Of a DNA stretch of 64,000 bases, positions 30,728 to 35,583 are shown in pieces. Under the pieces are notes generated by a model, which saw only the letters and a list, made by a program, of their open reading frames with translations, had not been told where the DNA came from and made no database searches. Location of the stretch: positions 1,054,001-1,118,000 of the forward strand of contig NZ_CP101824.1 of NCBI RefSeq assembly GCF_024498195.1, given 5' to 3'. This DNA comes from Halovivax cerinus (GTDB lineage Archaea > Halobacteriota > Halobacteria > Halobacteriales > Natrialbaceae). How positions within the stretch are numbered: position 1 is the stretch's first letter; each line of letters starts with the position of its first letter. A program made the position numbers and the translations under genes.

Positions 30728-31033
30728 ATGCCGGCGACGAAACGGTTCGAGGCCGGCGACGAGTTTCCGGCGGGCGACAGATGGGAAGCACTCGCCTGGG
30801 ACGTCCCACGAAGTGACGCGTTCCCCGAGGGGCTGAAGTACAGCTTTCAGTACCTCGGTCCCGCCGACGACGCGATCCTCCGGTACGACAACGCGAACGA
30901 CGCCCACGGCGTCGGCCGCCACCACCGCCACTATCGTGGCACGGTCGAAGGAATCGAATTCGAGGGCCTTCGGTCGCACGTCCGGACATTCCTCGACGAG
31001 GTCGAAACCATCCATGACCGAGAATTCGCCTGA
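30728..31033 (+). CDS. TumE-like toxin (DUF6516 family)
   Basis: 101 aa. Typical features are LRYDNANDAHGVGRHHRHYRG followed by EFEGLRSHVRTFLDEVE, the pattern of TumE/DUF6516 toxins of type II toxin-antitoxin systems. The downstream antitoxin-like gene overlaps it by 20 nt (start 31014), the usual toxin-first order. Longer starts from 30560 are possible but read through relic sequence. Confidence 0.7.
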   Translation: MPATKRFEAGDEFPAGDRWEALAWDVPRSDAFPEGLKYSFQYLGPADDAILRYDNANDAHGVGRHHRHYRGTVEGIEFEGLRSHVRTFLDEVETIHDREFA

Positions 31034-31463
31034 CCACACCGACGATCCCCCGGTAGACAGTGAGTCTCCCTCGACCCTTCGCATCACGTCGAAGCCGTTC
31101 GAGGAGCACAGAGAGTCTGTCCTGGACCGAGCGGAGCGCTGGGAGCAGGGCGAAGCGGTCCCGCACGTCGTCAACTTTCAGGACGCGAGCCGCCTCCAGC
31201 GCATCCTCACGCCGCGACGCCTGGAACTCGTGCGAAGTCTGATGGAAGCGCCCGCCGAGAGCATCCGCGACCTCGCCGCCCGCCTCGACCGGGACGTTCG
31301 ACAGGTCCACGACGACCTCCACCTCCTGTCCGACTACCGCATCGTCCACTTCACCGAATCTGGCGGTGCCAAGCAGCCCTCGGTCCCCTACGACACGGTC
31401 CAGATCGACATCGAACTCTCGACCCCATCGGCGGACGCGACCGAATCGCAGGCATCGGCGTAG
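31014..31463 (+). CDS. HTH antitoxin, HVO_A0114-type DNA-binding protein
   Basis: 149 aa. Residues 70-125 form a winged helix (LTPRRLELVRSLMEAPAES, IRDLAARLDRDVRQVHDDL as recognition helix, then IVHFTE). Proteins of this haloarchaeal type pair with TumE-like toxins and usually repress their own operon. It overlaps the toxin gene. A relative stands alone at 35916. Confidence 0.75.
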   Translation: MTENSPDHTDDPPVDSESPSTLRITSKPFEEHRESVLDRAERWEQGEAVPHVVNFQDASRLQRILTPRRLELVRSLMEAPAESIRDLAARLDRDVRQVHDDLHLLSDYRIVHFTESGGAKQPSVPYDTVQIDIELSTPSADATESQASA

Positions 31464-31695: not shown

Positions 31696-32880
31696 ATGGG
31701 CCGGCGGAAGCGCCGGCGGCGCGCAGATCGGGAGCGCGCGGCCGAGCGCGACCAGGCCGACGGCGAAGACGAGCGCGCCGCAGCGTCGACCAGTGGGACC
31801 CCGCTGGGCGTGCCGGACGCGCCGATCCCCGATTCTCCGATTCCCGACGCGGGCGTTCCGGACGTGGGCGCTCCCGATATGGGGATGGGCGGGGCGGCGA
31901 CACCAGGCGCAGCGATGGGCCAGGAACACGGGCGTGGGGCGACCCCGTCGCTGTCGATGCGCGGCTACGGCCCCGAGGCCCAACAGCACATTCACCGTGC
32001 GACGACGGACGCCGGGACCGATCCGGACGCGGTTCCGGATGCCGTCCTGGACGTGCTCGCAACTGGCTCTGGGCAGTCGCTCGACGCCTCGACTCAGCGA
32101 GCGCTGGAAGAGCGGATGGACGCCGACTTCTCGGACGTGGAGATTCACACCGGCCCGGAAGCGGCGAAGGCCGCCGACGCGATCGATGCCCGGGCGTTCA
32201 CGTGCGGCACCGCGATCGTGTTCAACGACGGTGAGTACGATCCCGAGAGTGCGGAAGGACAGCACCTCTTGGCGCATGAACTCGCCCACGTCAAGCAGCA
32301 GACGGGCGGCGCGAACGGAGTGAGGGCCGCCGGATCAGCGAGCGGGAGCGAAGCGACACGCGAGCCGGGTGCGGCAATCTCGATGATGCCGCAGGTGGAT
32401 GCGGATCTGGAGATTGACCCTGATCCGCAACTGGAGCGGGAGGCCGATCAGATGGCCCAGCGAGTACTAAATAGCGAAACGTTGGGGCTGGAAAATATCC
32501 AGAATACATCGATTCACATTCAACGTTCAGAGAAACAGACTCAAACTGACGATGGATCTGATGACGCGCCTGTCGACGTCACGTTCTCGGATACACAACT
32601 TCAATCGAAATTCAAGCACGCACCCGTGTTTGGTGTTGAAGAGAACTGGAATATGGATAGCAAAGAACGGTTCAAAAGCGCCTTGAAAGAGCACATTTCA
32701 GATGCGGAGACAAGAATTATTGAAGGAAAATATCAAGATCAACCGGCGATACACTACTATAACAGCCAGACCAAAAACGTGGTAATCACTAAGCCAGATC
32801 GGAGGTTTTGGACGTGTTGGAAGCTTTCGCCTGCACAGGAGAACTATCTTCTTAATACAGGTAAGATTGGAGGAAGGTAA
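31696..32880 (+). CDS. Polymorphic toxin: DUF4157 carrier with C-terminal colicin D-like tRNase domain
   Basis: 394 aa in three parts. 1-95: basic start, then a disordered stretch with PIPDSPIPDAGVPDVGAPDM. 110-205: DUF4157 domain with DFSDVEIHTGPEAAKAADAI, GEYDPESAEG and the metal motif HELAH (194-198). 290-394: colicin D-like nuclease with KFKHAPVFG (K305, K307, H308), YQDQPAIHYYN, and WTCWKLSPAQ (T373, W375) ending GKIGG. Colicin D cuts tRNA-Arg anticodon loops; its catalytic K-x-K-H and S-x-W positions match here except Ser to Thr. DUF4157 proteins often carry toxins for contractile injection systems. Codon use turns A/T-rich after about 32450. The immunity gene follows 3 nt on. Confidence 0.85.
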   Translation: MGRRKRRRRADRERAAERDQADGEDERAAASTSGTPLGVPDAPIPDSPIPDAGVPDVGAPDMGMGGAATPGAAMGQEHGRGATPSLSMRGYGPEAQQHIHRATTDAGTDPDAVPDAVLDVLATGSGQSLDASTQRALEERMDADFSDVEIHTGPEAAKAADAIDARAFTCGTAIVFNDGEYDPESAEGQHLLAHELAHVKQQTGGANGVRAAGSASGSEATREPGAAISMMPQVDADLEIDPDPQLEREADQMAQRVLNSETLGLENIQNTSIHIQRSEKQTQTDDGSDDAPVDVTFSDTQLQSKFKHAPVFGVEENWNMDSKERFKSALKEHISDAETRIIEGKYQDQPAIHYYNSQTKNVVITKPDRRFWTCWKLSPAQENYLLNTGKIGGR

Positions 32881-32883
32881 CCG

Positions 32884-33177
32884 ATGAACGAAGAATACGT
32901 CCGAAAGTATATGGACTTGATCAGAGAGTTCGTGCGTGGAGAGGCCACTGCCACCGAGTTCTCTACGAAATACATGAACGAATTTTTGGATGACGACGAG
33001 ATACCTGAGGATGAGGTATTCAAACCTCTCGACTATCTCTTTGCGGAGGCTGATGCGTATTGCGAGCCGGAACTCAGAGACGATGTTATCGGCGGCATCG
33101 GGGAAGCGGAACTCGAAGCGTCTGCAACGGAAGTATTAGAAGAGCTGAAAGAACTCCTGGACGAAAACGACAGTTAA
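32884..33177 (+). CDS. Colicin D-type immunity protein
   Basis: 97 aa, acidic and helical. It matches the colicin immunity family pattern: KYMDLIREFVRGEATATEFS, then a short helix, PLDYLFAEADAYCEPELRDD, and a C-terminal helix EVLEELKELL. It should bind and block the nuclease domain of the gene just upstream (gap 3 nt). The A/T-rich composition equals that of the toxin tip, so the two probably moved together. Confidence 0.85.
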   Translation: MNEEYVRKYMDLIREFVRGEATATEFSTKYMNEFLDDDEIPEDEVFKPLDYLFAEADAYCEPELRDDVIGGIGEAELEASATEVLEELKELLDENDS

Positions 33178-33206: not shown

Positions 33207-33388
33207 ATGACAGCGGCTGACCAGTCCATTGGCGAGCAGGCAGTCGCCCATCTCGTCGAACACGGTGCTGATCCCCACCACGAGAACGACGCCGGAAAAC
33301 GCCACTCTCGATCGTCCGCGAAGCCGACGCGGAGGTACCCGAATTCCTCGAACGGCCGTCGGACGAGGCGTCGTCGACAGACGCGTGA
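33207..33388 (+). pseudogene. Frameshifted ankyrin-type fragment
   Basis: From ATG 33207 the frame reads AVAHLVEHGADPHHENDAGK and then turns into nonsense-like arginine-rich sequence. Adding one A to ggaaaacg (about 33293-33300) gives GKTPLSIVREADAEVPEFLE and a stop at 33388, the end of an ankyrin repeat. Ankyrin-type immunity proteins are common in toxin loci. Without the correction the open frame runs on to 33476 and ends RFTGRLSPGQFEMDG, which resembles the small ORF at 34580. Confidence 0.5.
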
Positions 33389-33472: not shown

Positions 33473-33811
33473 ATGACGCAGGTCCAGTACGACGACAACG
33501 TGTTGACGATCGACGGCGAATCGATGGCCCTCGAATATGAGATTACGCAAGTGATGGAGGCGGATGGGATTATTCTCGTGGTCCTCTACCCACCCGAGGG
33601 TGAACAACACGATGGACGGAACGTCATTGCCTTCGATACGAACGGCACCCGGCTGTGGCGATCCGAGCGCCCAGAAGACGCGACGAGTCACTGCTTCGGC
33701 GAACTCTACAAAGAGGGCGAGGAGGTGATCGGCTGGAGCTGGAACTCCAACGAGTACAAGATCGACCTCGAAACGGGGGAACTCGAAAACCTCGGCTACG
33801 GCGGGAAGTAA
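33473..33811 (+). CDS. 112-aa repeat-family protein 1 (putative immunity protein)
   Basis: 112 aa, acidic, no Cys cluster, no membrane segment. Conserved over the family: an N-terminal strand set VLTIDGESMALEYEI, then VLYPPEGEQHDGRNVIAFD, LWRSERP, and IGWSWNSNEYKIDLETGELE. It is nearly identical in plan to 34711 and more distant from 33867 and 34245. Four such genes in tandem behind a toxin-immunity pair suggest an immunity array; this is context only. The ATG overlaps the previous frame by 4 nt. Confidence 0.7.
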   Translation: MTQVQYDDNVLTIDGESMALEYEITQVMEADGIILVVLYPPEGEQHDGRNVIAFDTNGTRLWRSERPEDATSHCFGELYKEGEEVIGWSWNSNEYKIDLETGELENLGYGGK

Positions 33812-33866
33812 CTCACTCCAATGAGATCCATTTCGATGCGCATTGACGGTTCGAGGTGACGGTTCC

Positions 33867-34205
33867 GTGCCACCTGTCGCGTCCGATGCGAATCTACTCA
33901 CGATCGGTGAAATGGACATCGAAGTCGAACATCCGATCGGTCAGGTACTCGAGTTGGAAGACCGAGTCCTCGTCTTGCTCTCTCCCAGTCAGGACGCCGG
34001 TCGAGACCGGCAAAACGTCCTCGCATTCTCCTACGATGGGGACCTGCTGTGGAAGTCGTCTATCCCTGAAAAATCAGACAGACACATGTTCGGCAGTTTG
34101 ACGACGGAGGATGGCGATATCATCGGCTGGAGTTGGAACAAGCAGGAATATCGCATCGATCCCGAGACGGGCGAACTGGAAGATCGAGGCTTTCGAGGAA
34201 AGTAG
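33867..34205 (+). CDS. 112-aa repeat-family protein 2 (putative immunity protein)
   Basis: 112 aa from a GTG start, chosen because it makes the length equal to the paralogues and aligns LLTIGEMDIEVEHPIGQV with their N-termini. It shares RQNVLAFSYDGDLLWKS and IGWSWNKQEYRIDPETGELE. A TTG at 33843 would add 8 residues. It is clearly a diverged member, about half identical to copy 1. Confidence 0.65.
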   Translation: MPPVASDANLLTIGEMDIEVEHPIGQVLELEDRVLVLLSPSQDAGRDRQNVLAFSYDGDLLWKSSIPEKSDRHMFGSLTTEDGDIIGWSWNKQEYRIDPETGELEDRGFRGK

Positions 34206-34244
34206 TCACCGACTATCCTCGCCGCACTCCTGAGCACTCCCAAA

Positions 34245-34583
34245 ATGACCACGATAGACGAAAGCGGTACCGAACTCCGCATCGACGGCGAGACGGTCAC
34301 CCTCCCGGAACCCATCGAAGACGTCGAGGAGGTCGACGACACGGTCGTCGTCCTCTTCGGCGATGGATCGAGTGAACCGAGCGACACGAACGTCTGGGCG
34401 TTCGCGACTGATGGGGCCAAACTGTGGGAGATCGAGGCCGCGACCCTCCCGACCGGAGACGCCTACCGCTACACTGGCATCGCGGTCGAAGACGGTGCGC
34501 TTCGCGCGTCCAACTGGAAGGGTGGGACGTATCACGTCGACCCGACCGACGGGTCGATCGTCGAAAGTGAGCTTACGAAGTGA
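34245..34583 (+). CDS. 112-aa repeat-family protein 3 (putative immunity protein)
   Basis: 112 aa, the most divergent member. It keeps the plan: strand set TELRIDGETVTLPEPIEDV, then NVWAFATDGAKLWEIEA, and ASNWKGGTYHVDPTDGSIVE. This form (W-x-G-x-Y-x-(V/L)-D-x-x-x-G) is also common in bacterial putative immunity proteins as I remember them. The stop overlaps the GTG of the next small frame (GTGA). Confidence 0.65.
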   Translation: MTTIDESGTELRIDGETVTLPEPIEDVEEVDDTVVVLFGDGSSEPSDTNVWAFATDGAKLWEIEAATLPTGDAYRYTGIAVEDGALRASNWKGGTYHVDPTDGSIVESELTK

Positions 34584-34714
34584 GCTACGAACGAGTTCGT
34601 CGGAGGCGTCGTCGACAGAAGCGTGAACGACAATTCCGGTTCACTGGCCGGCTCAGTCTCGGACAATCCGAGATGGACGAACCGCTCGAAAAACTGCTAA
34701 AGGAAACTGAATGA
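34580..34714 (+). CDS. Small basic ORF between family members 3 and 4
   Basis: 44 aa, overlapping both neighbours by 4 nt (GTGA at its start, ATGA at its end), as translationally coupled genes do. It reads RERQFRFTGRLSLGQSEMDE then LEKLLKETE. The same end occurs at 33420-33476. Conservation of this frame between the two places supports coding, but the arginine-rich front half overlaps the remnant ankyrin end (SSTEA stop) in another frame, so it may be a leftover. Confidence 0.4.
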   Translation: MSYERVRRRRRRQKRERQFRFTGRLSLGQSEMDEPLEKLLKETE

Positions 34715-35049
34715 CGCAAATTCACTACGAAGATAACGTGCTCACCATCGGTGATGAATCGATCAGTATGGAGTACACGATCAGCCAGGTGCTGGAAGAA
34801 CCAGACATCGTGATCGCGGTCCTCTACCCTCCCGAGGGTGAGCAACACGACGGACGGAACGTGGTTGCGTTCGATACGGATGGAAACCAGCTGTGGCGGT
34901 CAGCACGCCCGGAAGATGCCACCAGCCATCTCTTCGGCGAGCTCTACAAAGAGGGTGGAGACGTAATCGGCTGGAGCTGGAACCACAACGAGTACAAGAT
35001 CGACCTCGAGACGGGCGAACTCGAGAATCTCGGGTACGGCGGGAAGTAA
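34711..35049 (+). CDS. 112-aa repeat-family protein 4 (putative immunity protein)
   Basis: 112 aa. Very close to copy 1 (33473): both have the same VLYPPEGEQHDGRNV, RPEDATSH and NEYKIDLETGELENLGYGGK segments. The flanking 140 bp before each of these two genes is also duplicated, so copies 1 and 4 arose by duplication of a block containing the ankyrin tail, the small basic frame and the gene. Confidence 0.7.
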   Translation: MTQIHYEDNVLTIGDESISMEYTISQVLEEPDIVIAVLYPPEGEQHDGRNVVAFDTDGNQLWRSARPEDATSHLFGELYKEGGDVIGWSWNHNEYKIDLETGELENLGYGGK

Positions 35050-35087
35050 TCCCCACAGTGAATACTCGCACCTCCACGGGTCCGAGT

Positions 35088-35203
35088 CTACAGCAAATTC
35101 GCAGCGGGACGACGGATTTCGGGACCGATCCGGATGCGGTTCTTGACCCGGTCATCGATGTGTTCACAATTGGTGGCGGGCAGTGCTCCACGCCTCGATC
35201 CAT
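35088..35203 (+). pseudogene. Relic of a DUF4157 toxin gene
   Basis: About 115 bp read QQIRSGTTDFGTDPDAVLDP then VIDVFTIGGGQ, matching toxin residues 96-133 (HRATTDAGTDPDAVPDAVLD, VLATGSGQ). A single missing base after gggcag breaks the frame, and the match ends near 35203. No start codon or catalytic part remains. Confidence 0.7.
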
Positions 35204-35226
35204 CTTCTCAGCTTCGTCGGCGGGAC

Positions 35227-35583
35227 TTACTCGTTGTAGTAGATGTGGAGGTCGGCGAAGTCCTGCCAGTTCTGAAGGAGGTAGTCTCGCATCCGTCGAA
35301 AGGAATAGTCGTCGTCGAGCCACACCTTTTTCTGCTCGTCGATGTCGGGTGGCAGATACTCTTTGTCGAGATGGGGTTGACCGTGGCGCGTATCCATCCC
35401 GACAATTTCGTCGTTTTCGTCCAGTGGTGTCTCGGCTTTCTGGACGAGGGACCACCCGTAGTTCTCGGCGTCTGCTGCTGGGTCGTATTCCTCGTCTCTA
35501 TGAGGGTCCGGCTCGACGTACCCGACGAGGAAATAATTGTCTCCCCGATAGGTCCCGAGGTCGATACTGTCAAAGCGTTCCAT
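35227..35583 (-). CDS. Unrecognised acidic protein, possibly TumE/DUF7718-like
   Basis: 118 aa. The C-terminal half, MDTRHGQPHLDKEYLPPD followed by SFRRMRDYLLQNWQDF, has the same order of features as the TumE-like toxin at 30728 (D/H-rich strand, then a long helix with a YL/FL and DF). I suspect a member of the same toxin superfamily but cannot prove it. It is divergent from the antitoxin-like gene at 35916 across 332 bp that contains an A/T-rich, TATA-like patch at 35780-35812. Confidence 0.55.
   Translation of the reverse strand: MERFDSIDLGTYRGDNYFLVGYVEPDPHRDEEYDPAADAENYGWSLVQKAETPLDENDEIVGMDTRHGQPHLDKEYLPPDIDEQKKVWLDDDYSFRRMRDYLLQNWQDFADLHIYYNE

What the first reader, a model, noticed from the sequence alone, without database searches (positions are those of the whole stretch)
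31696..33177. Archaeal colicin D-like toxin on a DUF4157 carrier, with its immunity gene
A haloarchaeal gene joins a disordered basic start, a DUF4157 HELAH domain and a C-terminal domain with the colicin D catalytic arrangement (K305-x-K307-H308, then T373-x-W375). The next gene, 3 nt on, matches the colicin D immunity family. This combination, a tRNA anticodon nuclease on an injection-type carrier in an archaeon, would be an interspecies or self/non-self weapon. Seen: motifs and layout. Known: colicin D cuts tRNA-Arg; DUF4157 proteins accompany contractile injection systems. Inferred: target and delivery route.
Basis: partly seen in the sequence, partly recalled or inferred. Interest (0 to 1): 0.88.

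Follow-up and report, generated by a model that had tools for sequence, protein, structure and literature searches.

The report
Archaeal colicin D-type injected toxin pair
A salt-loving archaeon carries a toxin gene built from an injection-machine carrier fused to a colicin D-type RNA-cutting tip, with its antidote gene next door, and a sister species keeps a spare copy of that antidote (and vice versa), as expected for weapons that related cells use on each other; the kind of weapon was already known, this is a well-documented new member.

Summary
ORF 31696-32880 joins an eCIS_core/DUF4157 domain (E 1e-31) to a Colicin_D domain (E 1e-18). The gene 3 nt downstream is a colicin D immunity protein (E 5e-8). 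Predicted structures match colicin D (Foldseek E 4e-9, TM 0.82) and, more weakly, ImmD. K608, K610, H611, S/T677 and W679 are kept, but D614, listed as essential, is Val. The genome (a Halovivax) has a contractile injection system, split between two sites, with a T6SS-anchor-like gene shared with Haloferax elongans, and about 14-18 DUF4157 carriers. At the same site another Halovivax has the same carrier with a GH-E nuclease tip, so this is a polymorphic toxin with a swappable tip. New here is reciprocal orphan immunity: this genome keeps an orphan copy (92% identical) of the immunity gene of Halovivax asiaticus's own colicin D toxin, and H. asiaticus keeps an orphan copy (91%) of this one. 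Downstream lies an immunity island. The kind was already known: Zhang 2012 lists colicin D tips with PVC carriers and ImmD in euryarchaea, and Zachs 2024 showed haloarchaeal T6SS secretion of DUF4157 toxins. The tRNA-Arg anticodon target remains inference.

The parts
31014..31463 (+). HVO_A0114-type winged-helix gene upstream; part of the conserved flank that fixes this site as the same locus in Halovivax G032
   Evidence: Pfam PF25212 E 1e-31 (longer ORF from 30936); 93.5% nt identity to L128 2189-2667
31696..32460 (+). Carrier half of the toxin (aa 1-255): basic disordered start MGRRKRRRRADRER, Pro-rich linker, eCIS_core/DUF4157 domain (aa 129-205) with HELAH
   Evidence: Pfam; 72% identical to the carrier at the same site in G032; GC 0.71, GC3 0.80
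32461..32880 (+). Swappable tip: linker and colicin D-type nuclease domain (aa 301-384); K305, K307, H308, T373, W375 kept, D614 position is V311
   Evidence: Pfam E 1.1e-18; PDB phmmer 3.5e-14; AF2 model pLDDT 94.5 and Foldseek to 1tfo/1v74; GC 0.44 against 0.71 in the carrier
32884..33177 (+). Cognate immunity protein (ImmD family, 'ImmA' in this report)
   Evidence: Pfam PF09204 E 5.3e-8; AF2 pLDDT 92 with 1v74_B/1tfk_B as the only confident Foldseek matches; the same pairing at most of the 72 related loci; 91% identical orphan in H. asiaticus
33207..33285 (+). Truncated SUKH-1 (SMI1/KNR4) immunity gene: only the first ~26 codons are recognisable
   Evidence: 77% identity to aa 1-26 of the intact SUKH gene next to the orphan ImmA in H. 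asiaticus (SUKH assignment: Pfam)
33473..33811 (+). 112-aa family ('f112'), copy 1: probable orphan immunity gene for a different DUF4157 toxin
   Evidence: no Pfam family; homologues sit directly 3' of DUF4157 toxins
33843..34205 (+). f112 copy 2
34245..34583 (+). f112 copy 3
34711..35049 (+). f112 copy 4 (77% identical to copy 1)
35040..35204 (+). Decayed fragment of a second DUF4157 carrier
   Evidence: blastx 47% to carrier aa 80-137, E 2.7e-9

Best explanation
This is a polymorphic toxin/immunity pair loaded on a haloarchaeal contractile injection system. The basic N-terminus and DUF4157 domain attach or address the protein to the spike or tube of the injection machine (inferred). On contact the machine drives it into a neighbouring archaeon, where the C-terminal colicin D-fold RNase cuts RNA, most likely tRNA, and stops translation (family-based inference). 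The adjacent ImmD-family protein binds the nuclease and protects the producer and kin. The tip is a swappable cassette. When a tip is replaced, its immunity gene can stay behind as an orphan and protect against relatives that still use it, which gives the reciprocal orphan antidotes seen in two Halovivax species.
For: Domains and fold: toxin; immunity. Pairing: 72 related loci, most with an ImmD gene next to the toxin. Machine: sheath, tubes and DUF6760 at C1:315-321 kb; tube/LysM, hub, spike, PAAR, gp25, two baseplate J and a Tail_P2_I protein at C1:1.208-1.219 Mb. A six-TM gene upstream of the baseplate genes has a homologue upstream of the baseplate genes of Haloferax elongans, fitting the T6SS membrane anchor described in PMC11566945. 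The four genomes with DUF4157-borne colicin D all have gp25 and many DUF4157 genes; five other genomes with a Colicin_D match on another carrier have neither. Tip swap: same site in G032, 72% identical carrier but a GH-E nuclease tip (E 6.9e-26) with an ankyrin gene next to it; GC falls from 0.71 to 0.44 at the tip. Reciprocal orphans: 91% and 92% identity between cognate and orphan copies against 39-41% between the two types; one Colicin_D gene per genome but 3 ImmD in G000 and 2 in H. asiaticus. Precedent: DUF4157 proteins secreted in a T6SS-dependent way, some toxic to H. volcanii and neutralised by the downstream gene (PMC11566945).
Against: No experiment. D614, which Zhang 2012 lists as essential in colicin D, is Val here (66 of 74 relatives keep D; two bacterial rows also have V). 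The pair is not next to the CIS genes (about 120 kb from the baseplate cluster), and the CIS is split between two sites, so a working machine is assumed. Substrate specificity cannot be read from sequence.
Confidence: 0.82

Rival explanations
1. Same weapon, different RNA target: the tip is a colicin D-fold RNase that cuts tRNA acceptor stems, or RNA unspecifically, perhaps with help from the archaeal elongation factor, rather than tRNA-Arg anticodon loops.
For: PF11429 members CdiA-CT EC3006 and Kp342 are listed as tRNases, with acceptor-stem cleavage stated for EC3006 (PMC9990079); CdiA-CT O32:H37 has a similar active site but is a non-specific RNase that needs EF-Tu (PMC12585627). D614 is lost and K607 is Ser in the window protein.
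Against: The predicted structure is much closer to colicin D (TM 0.82) than to CdiA O32:H37 (TM 0.56).
Confidence: 0.4
2. The tip is a weakened or dead relic: replacement of D614 and K607 has cost it activity and the locus is a graveyard of cassettes.
For: V at the D614 position; truncated SUKH gene and carrier fragment lie just downstream.
Against: The 394-aa frame is intact, the K/K/H/T/W set is kept, T at 677 occurs in 25 of 74 relatives and S at 607 in 12 of 74, and the cognate immunity gene is intact. At D614 the H. elongans cassette has R, but that one may itself be a displaced cassette.
Confidence: 0.1
3. An intracellular toxin-antitoxin or anti-virus suicide pair that never leaves the cell.
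For: Two-gene layout with tight spacing is also typical of toxin-antitoxin operons.
Against: eCIS_core carrier; CIS genes in every genome examined that has this architecture and in none of the five examined in which Colicin_D sits on another carrier; tip swapping and reciprocal orphan immunity.
Confidence: 0.05
4. The orphan immunity genes are neutral leftovers of cassette loss rather than retained protection.
For: Only one species pair shows the reciprocal pattern; the ImmA comparison has dN/dS 0.57 from few changes.
Against: Both orphans are full-length open frames. ImmB has dN/dS 0.24, and dS of the two pairs (0.07, 0.15) is at or below the lowest of four chromosomal genes of the same species pair (0.14-0.73). 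H. asiaticus ImmA lies in an array of immunity genes without any toxin A remnant. G011 has an intact ImmD+SUKH pair but no colicin D, no gp25 and no intact DUF4157 gene.
Confidence: 0.3

Closest known systems
Colicin D / ImmD of E. coli (PDB 1v74, 1tfk, 1tfo)
   Same: Toxin fold (TM 0.82), about 36% identity, K608/K610/H611/W679 kept, S677 as T; immunity gene directly downstream and in the same family and fold
   Different: Carrier is a DUF4157 injection-system effector instead of a colicin receptor/translocation module; D614 is V and K607 is S; archaeal host; target untested
PVC/eCIS-type polymorphic toxins of haloarchaea (Zhang 2012 PMC3482391; Makarova 2019 PMC6393860)
   Same: DUF4157 carrier with variable C-terminal tip; Tox-ColicinD in euryarchaeota with PVC carriers and ImmD is already in Zhang's table
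   Different: Here with its genome context: tip swap at one locus, orphan immunity exchange, CIS inventory
Haloarchaeal T6SS and its DUF4157 toxin-immunity pairs, Halogeometricum borinquense (Zachs 2024 PMC11566945)
   Same: DUF4157 toxins scattered in the genome with an immunity gene downstream; CIS genes including an anchor-like gene; H. elongans, shown there to antagonise on contact, carries a related colicin D cassette (L139)
   Different: Paper's main text does not mention colicin or Halovivax; CIS here is split by about 0.89 Mb
Orphan immunity genes in bacterial T6SS/CDI systems (e.g. PMC10539506, PMC12247911)
   Same: Immunity without its toxin, arrays of immunity genes, displaced cassettes
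   Different: Archaeal, and reciprocal between two congeneric species; no held paper combines 'orphan immunity' with 'haloarchaea'

Membership tests
Colicin D tRNase domain (PF11429) | Sequence match above the curated cut-off | tested here: met
   67.8 bits against 25
Colicin D tRNase domain (PF11429) | Colicin D fold | tested here: met
   Foldseek E 3.6e-9, TM 0.82, 1.8 A to 1tfo_A
Colicin D tRNase domain (PF11429) | Catalytic set K608, K610, H611, S677, W679 | tested here: met
   SKFKH and TCW motifs; S677 replaced by T as in 25 of 74 relatives. K608/K610/H611 conservation in that set is partly by construction of the search pattern
Colicin D tRNase domain (PF11429) | D614 and K607, listed as essential by Zhang 2012 | tested here: not met
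   V and S in the window protein; D614 is D in 66 of 74, K607 is K in 59 of 74. Relatives with S607 are common, and the pyocin SD paper reports only four of six critical residues kept in active colicin D-type pyocins, so this does not exclude membership but lowers confidence in identical chemistry
Colicin D tRNase domain (PF11429) | Cleaves tRNA-Arg between 38 and 39 | not testable with these tools
   needs an assay
Colicin D immunity (PF09204, ImmD) | Profile match, fold, position next to the toxin | tested here: met
   33.8 bits against 22; 1v74_B TM 0.67, prob 1.00, E 0.016; 3 nt downstream
Colicin D immunity (PF09204, ImmD) | Binds and blocks the nuclease | not testable with these tools
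CIS (eCIS/T6SS) effector with DUF4157/eCIS_core | eCIS_core domain with HExxH N-terminal to a toxin | tested here: met
   108.9 bits against 22
CIS (eCIS/T6SS) effector with DUF4157/eCIS_core | Injection machine encoded in the genome | tested here: met
   sheath, tubes, hub, spike, PAAR, gp25, baseplate J; AAA ATPase not looked for
CIS (eCIS/T6SS) effector with DUF4157/eCIS_core | CIS-dependent secretion of this protein | not testable with these tools
   shown only for other DUF4157 proteins in PMC11566945
Polymorphic toxin system | Same carrier with different tips at one locus or among paralogues | tested here: met
   G032 has a GH-E tip at the syntenic site; paralogues align to about aa 281 then diverge
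Polymorphic toxin system | Orphan or displaced cassettes and immunity arrays | tested here: met
   orphan ImmB with toxin B tail in G000; orphan ImmA, SUKH and f112 arrays

The most novel reading that the evidence does not exclude
Two sister archaeal species wage a specific conflict with colicin D-type injected toxins: each carries one toxin type and keeps, away from it, a functional orphan antidote to the other's type. This would be a first genetic signature of reciprocal toxin-immunity exchange in an archaeal T6SS, with a tip whose active site lacks D614 and may have a shifted RNA target.
Probability: 0.45. Interest if true: 0.68.

Novelty: new member of a known kind. Interest (0 to 1): 0.5.

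Why it matters
Contact-dependent killing between archaea through an injection system was shown in 2024 (PMC11566945), and in the passages of that paper read here its toxins had no assigned activity. A toxin with a recognisable, assayable activity, its antidote, a tip-swapped allele and matched orphan antidotes in a sister species make the question 'do haloarchaeal injection systems police kin and close relatives, and by what enzymes?' directly testable with standard Haloferax volcanii genetics. H. elongans, already used in that work, carries a related cassette.

Tried and rejected
NCBIfam gave nothing meaningful and PHROGs nothing, so no sign of a viral origin. phmmer of the immunity protein against the PDB found nothing significant; profile and fold comparison did. 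A tree of 71 toxin tips did not resolve the bacterial source: the window row is a long branch and deep forks are weak, so direction of transfer is not claimed. Sigma-70 promoter and terminator scans are at chance level and not suited to archaea. I considered that D614V means a dead toxin and kept it as a rival at 0.1. I first guessed that f112-associated tips are ART/TNT-like from a glance at the sequence; Pfam did not support any family for them, so this is dropped. The Graille 2004 colicin D structure paper is not held, so mutational data are second-hand (PMC3482391, PMC4964976).

Full report
Observation. The 394-aa protein has an eCIS_core (DUF4157) domain at 129-205 and a Colicin_D domain at 301-384; the 97-aa protein 3 nt downstream is a Colicin_immun protein. 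Colicin D itself is the best PDB sequence match (E 3.5e-14). None of this is near chance.

Structure. With an alignment of 42 tips the domain is predicted at pLDDT 94.5, and Foldseek returns colicin D in the first five places (TM 0.78-0.83; 1.8 A to 1tfo), with the non-specific CdiA O32:H37 tip next at TM 0.56. The immunity protein is predicted at pLDDT 92 as a helical bundle; its only confident match is ImmD (1v74_B, 1tfk_B; E about 0.02, prob 1.00).

Active site. Aligned to colicin D, the window has K608, K610, H611, T677 and W679, but S607 and V614. Zhang 2012 lists K607, K608, H611, D614 and S677 as essential; the pyocin SD paper reports that four of six critical residues (K608, H611, S677, W679) are kept in its colicin D-type pyocins. 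Among 74 tips D614 is D in 66, V in 3; T677 in 25; S607 in 12. The search pattern required the K-x-K-H motif, so conservation of those residues in this set is partly built in.

Machine and delivery. The window lies in a 3.90 Mb genome of the same genus as G029, which is Halovivax asiaticus JCM 14624 (G029:C10 has the same length, 74,988, as NZ_AOIQ01000010). The genome has sheath, two tube genes and DUF6760 at C1:315-321 kb and CIS tube/LysM, hub, spike, PAAR, gp25, two baseplate J and a Tail_P2_I protein at C1:1.208-1.219 Mb. Upstream of the second block is a 371-aa protein with six predicted TM segments and a C-terminal soluble part; its homologue lies upstream of the baseplate genes of Haloferax elongans. 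Zachs 2024 describes such a gene as the likely membrane anchor of the T6SS mode in H. borinquense and H. elongans. So a cell-anchored T6SS mode is more likely than a released particle; this is inference. The same paper shows DUF4157 proteins secreted in a sheath-dependent way, some toxic and neutralised by the downstream gene.

Carrier and distribution. G000 has 18 eCIS_core matches, some of them fragments. In the sampled haloarchaea Colicin_D occurs in 9 of 391 genomes. The four with a DUF4157 carrier (this one, H. asiaticus, Natronobiforma, H. elongans) all have gp25 and 6-34 eCIS_core matches; in H. elongans the colicin D tip sits behind a truncated carrier. The four genomes of genus g36 (the Haloarcula argentinensis group, L029-L032) and G362 have neither, and the g36 tips ride on N-terminal parts without a Pfam name.

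Tip swapping. Halovivax G032 (3,223,876 bp) has the same upstream regulator (93.5% nt) and the same carrier (72% aa) at the same site, but with a GH-E nuclease tip and an ankyrin-repeat gene after it. DNA homology ends at about window 32460, where GC falls from 0.71 to 0.44.

Reciprocal orphan immunity. H. asiaticus carries one colicin D toxin ('B', C10) with its immunity gene, and on C8 an immunity gene 91% identical to the window's ('A') with no colicin D toxin nearby; nucleotide homology begins at the toxin/immunity junction, so only the antidote is there. The window genome carries toxin A with its immunity gene, and at C1:214107-214403 an intact immunity gene 92% identical to H. asiaticus ImmB, behind a carrier fragment and the last codons of toxin B; the neighbouring genes show this is the same locus as in H. 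asiaticus, now occupied by another DUF4157 cassette. A and B immunity proteins are only 39-41% identical. Silent divergence of both pairs (dS 0.07, 0.15) is at or below the lowest of four chromosomal comparisons between the two species (0.14-0.73); dN/dS is 0.57 and 0.24; the numbers are small. A third ImmD gene sits elsewhere in G000 (L152), and G011, with no gp25, no Colicin_D and only a fragment of eCIS_core, has an ImmD+SUKH pair. The pattern rests on one species pair, so retained protection is a reading, not a proof.

Immunity island. Downstream of ImmA are a truncated SUKH-1 gene, four copies of a 112-aa family with no Pfam name, and a carrier fragment. In other loci the 112-aa family lies directly after DUF4157 toxins or carrier-like proteins (own genome L019; L126, L127, L137) or after VWA surface proteins (L131, L136, L138), so it is probably an immunity family for a different tip.

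What is known. Zhang 2012 tabulates Tox-ColicinD in euryarchaeota, PVC carriers and ImmD; Makarova 2019 figures archaeal colicin D loci. The kind is therefore known and the finding is a new member. What I did not find described is the matched orphan exchange in archaea (no held paper with both terms; the held library is incomplete).

Verdict. Observation confirmed; interpretation supported in its core; RNA target open; novelty moderate.

Noticed in passing
window 33473-35049; also L019 7263-7595, L126, L127, L137, L131, L136, L138: Unnamed ~112-aa family in four tandem copies; elsewhere directly 3' of DUF4157 toxins or of VWA/TSP3 surface proteins: a candidate new immunity family shared by two delivery routes.
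   Followed up: partly
G000:C1:315-321 kb and C1:1208-1219 kb (L013, L033): The contractile injection system genes are split about 0.89 Mb apart (sheath/tubes versus hub/spike/baseplate), wider than the ~8.7 kb interspacing region reported in H. borinquense.
   Followed up: partly
L033 4796-9262 (G000:C1:1204295-1208761): A 1488-aa Ser/Pro/Arg-rich open frame lies between the anchor-like gene and the CIS tube/LysM gene; a gap of similar size is present in H. asiaticus and H. elongans. Could be a disordered structural protein such as a tape measure, or a chance frame.
   Followed up: no
G000:C1:3249163-3249543 (L152 5163-5543): A third ImmD gene of this genome, with no carrier or toxin nearby.
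   Followed up: partly
G011 (L153 5479-6543): ImmD followed by SUKH-1 in a genome without gp25, Colicin_D or intact eCIS_core: the same ImmD+SUKH order as in H. asiaticus (intact) and in the window (SUKH truncated).
   Followed up: partly
L019 7592-10516 (G000): A 974-aa protein with two eCIS_core domains and a LysM domain in one chain, followed directly by an f112 gene.
   Followed up: no
window 35227-35583 minus strand: Weak DUF7718 match (E 3e-4, below cut-off) on the opposite strand next to the carrier fragment.
   Followed up: no
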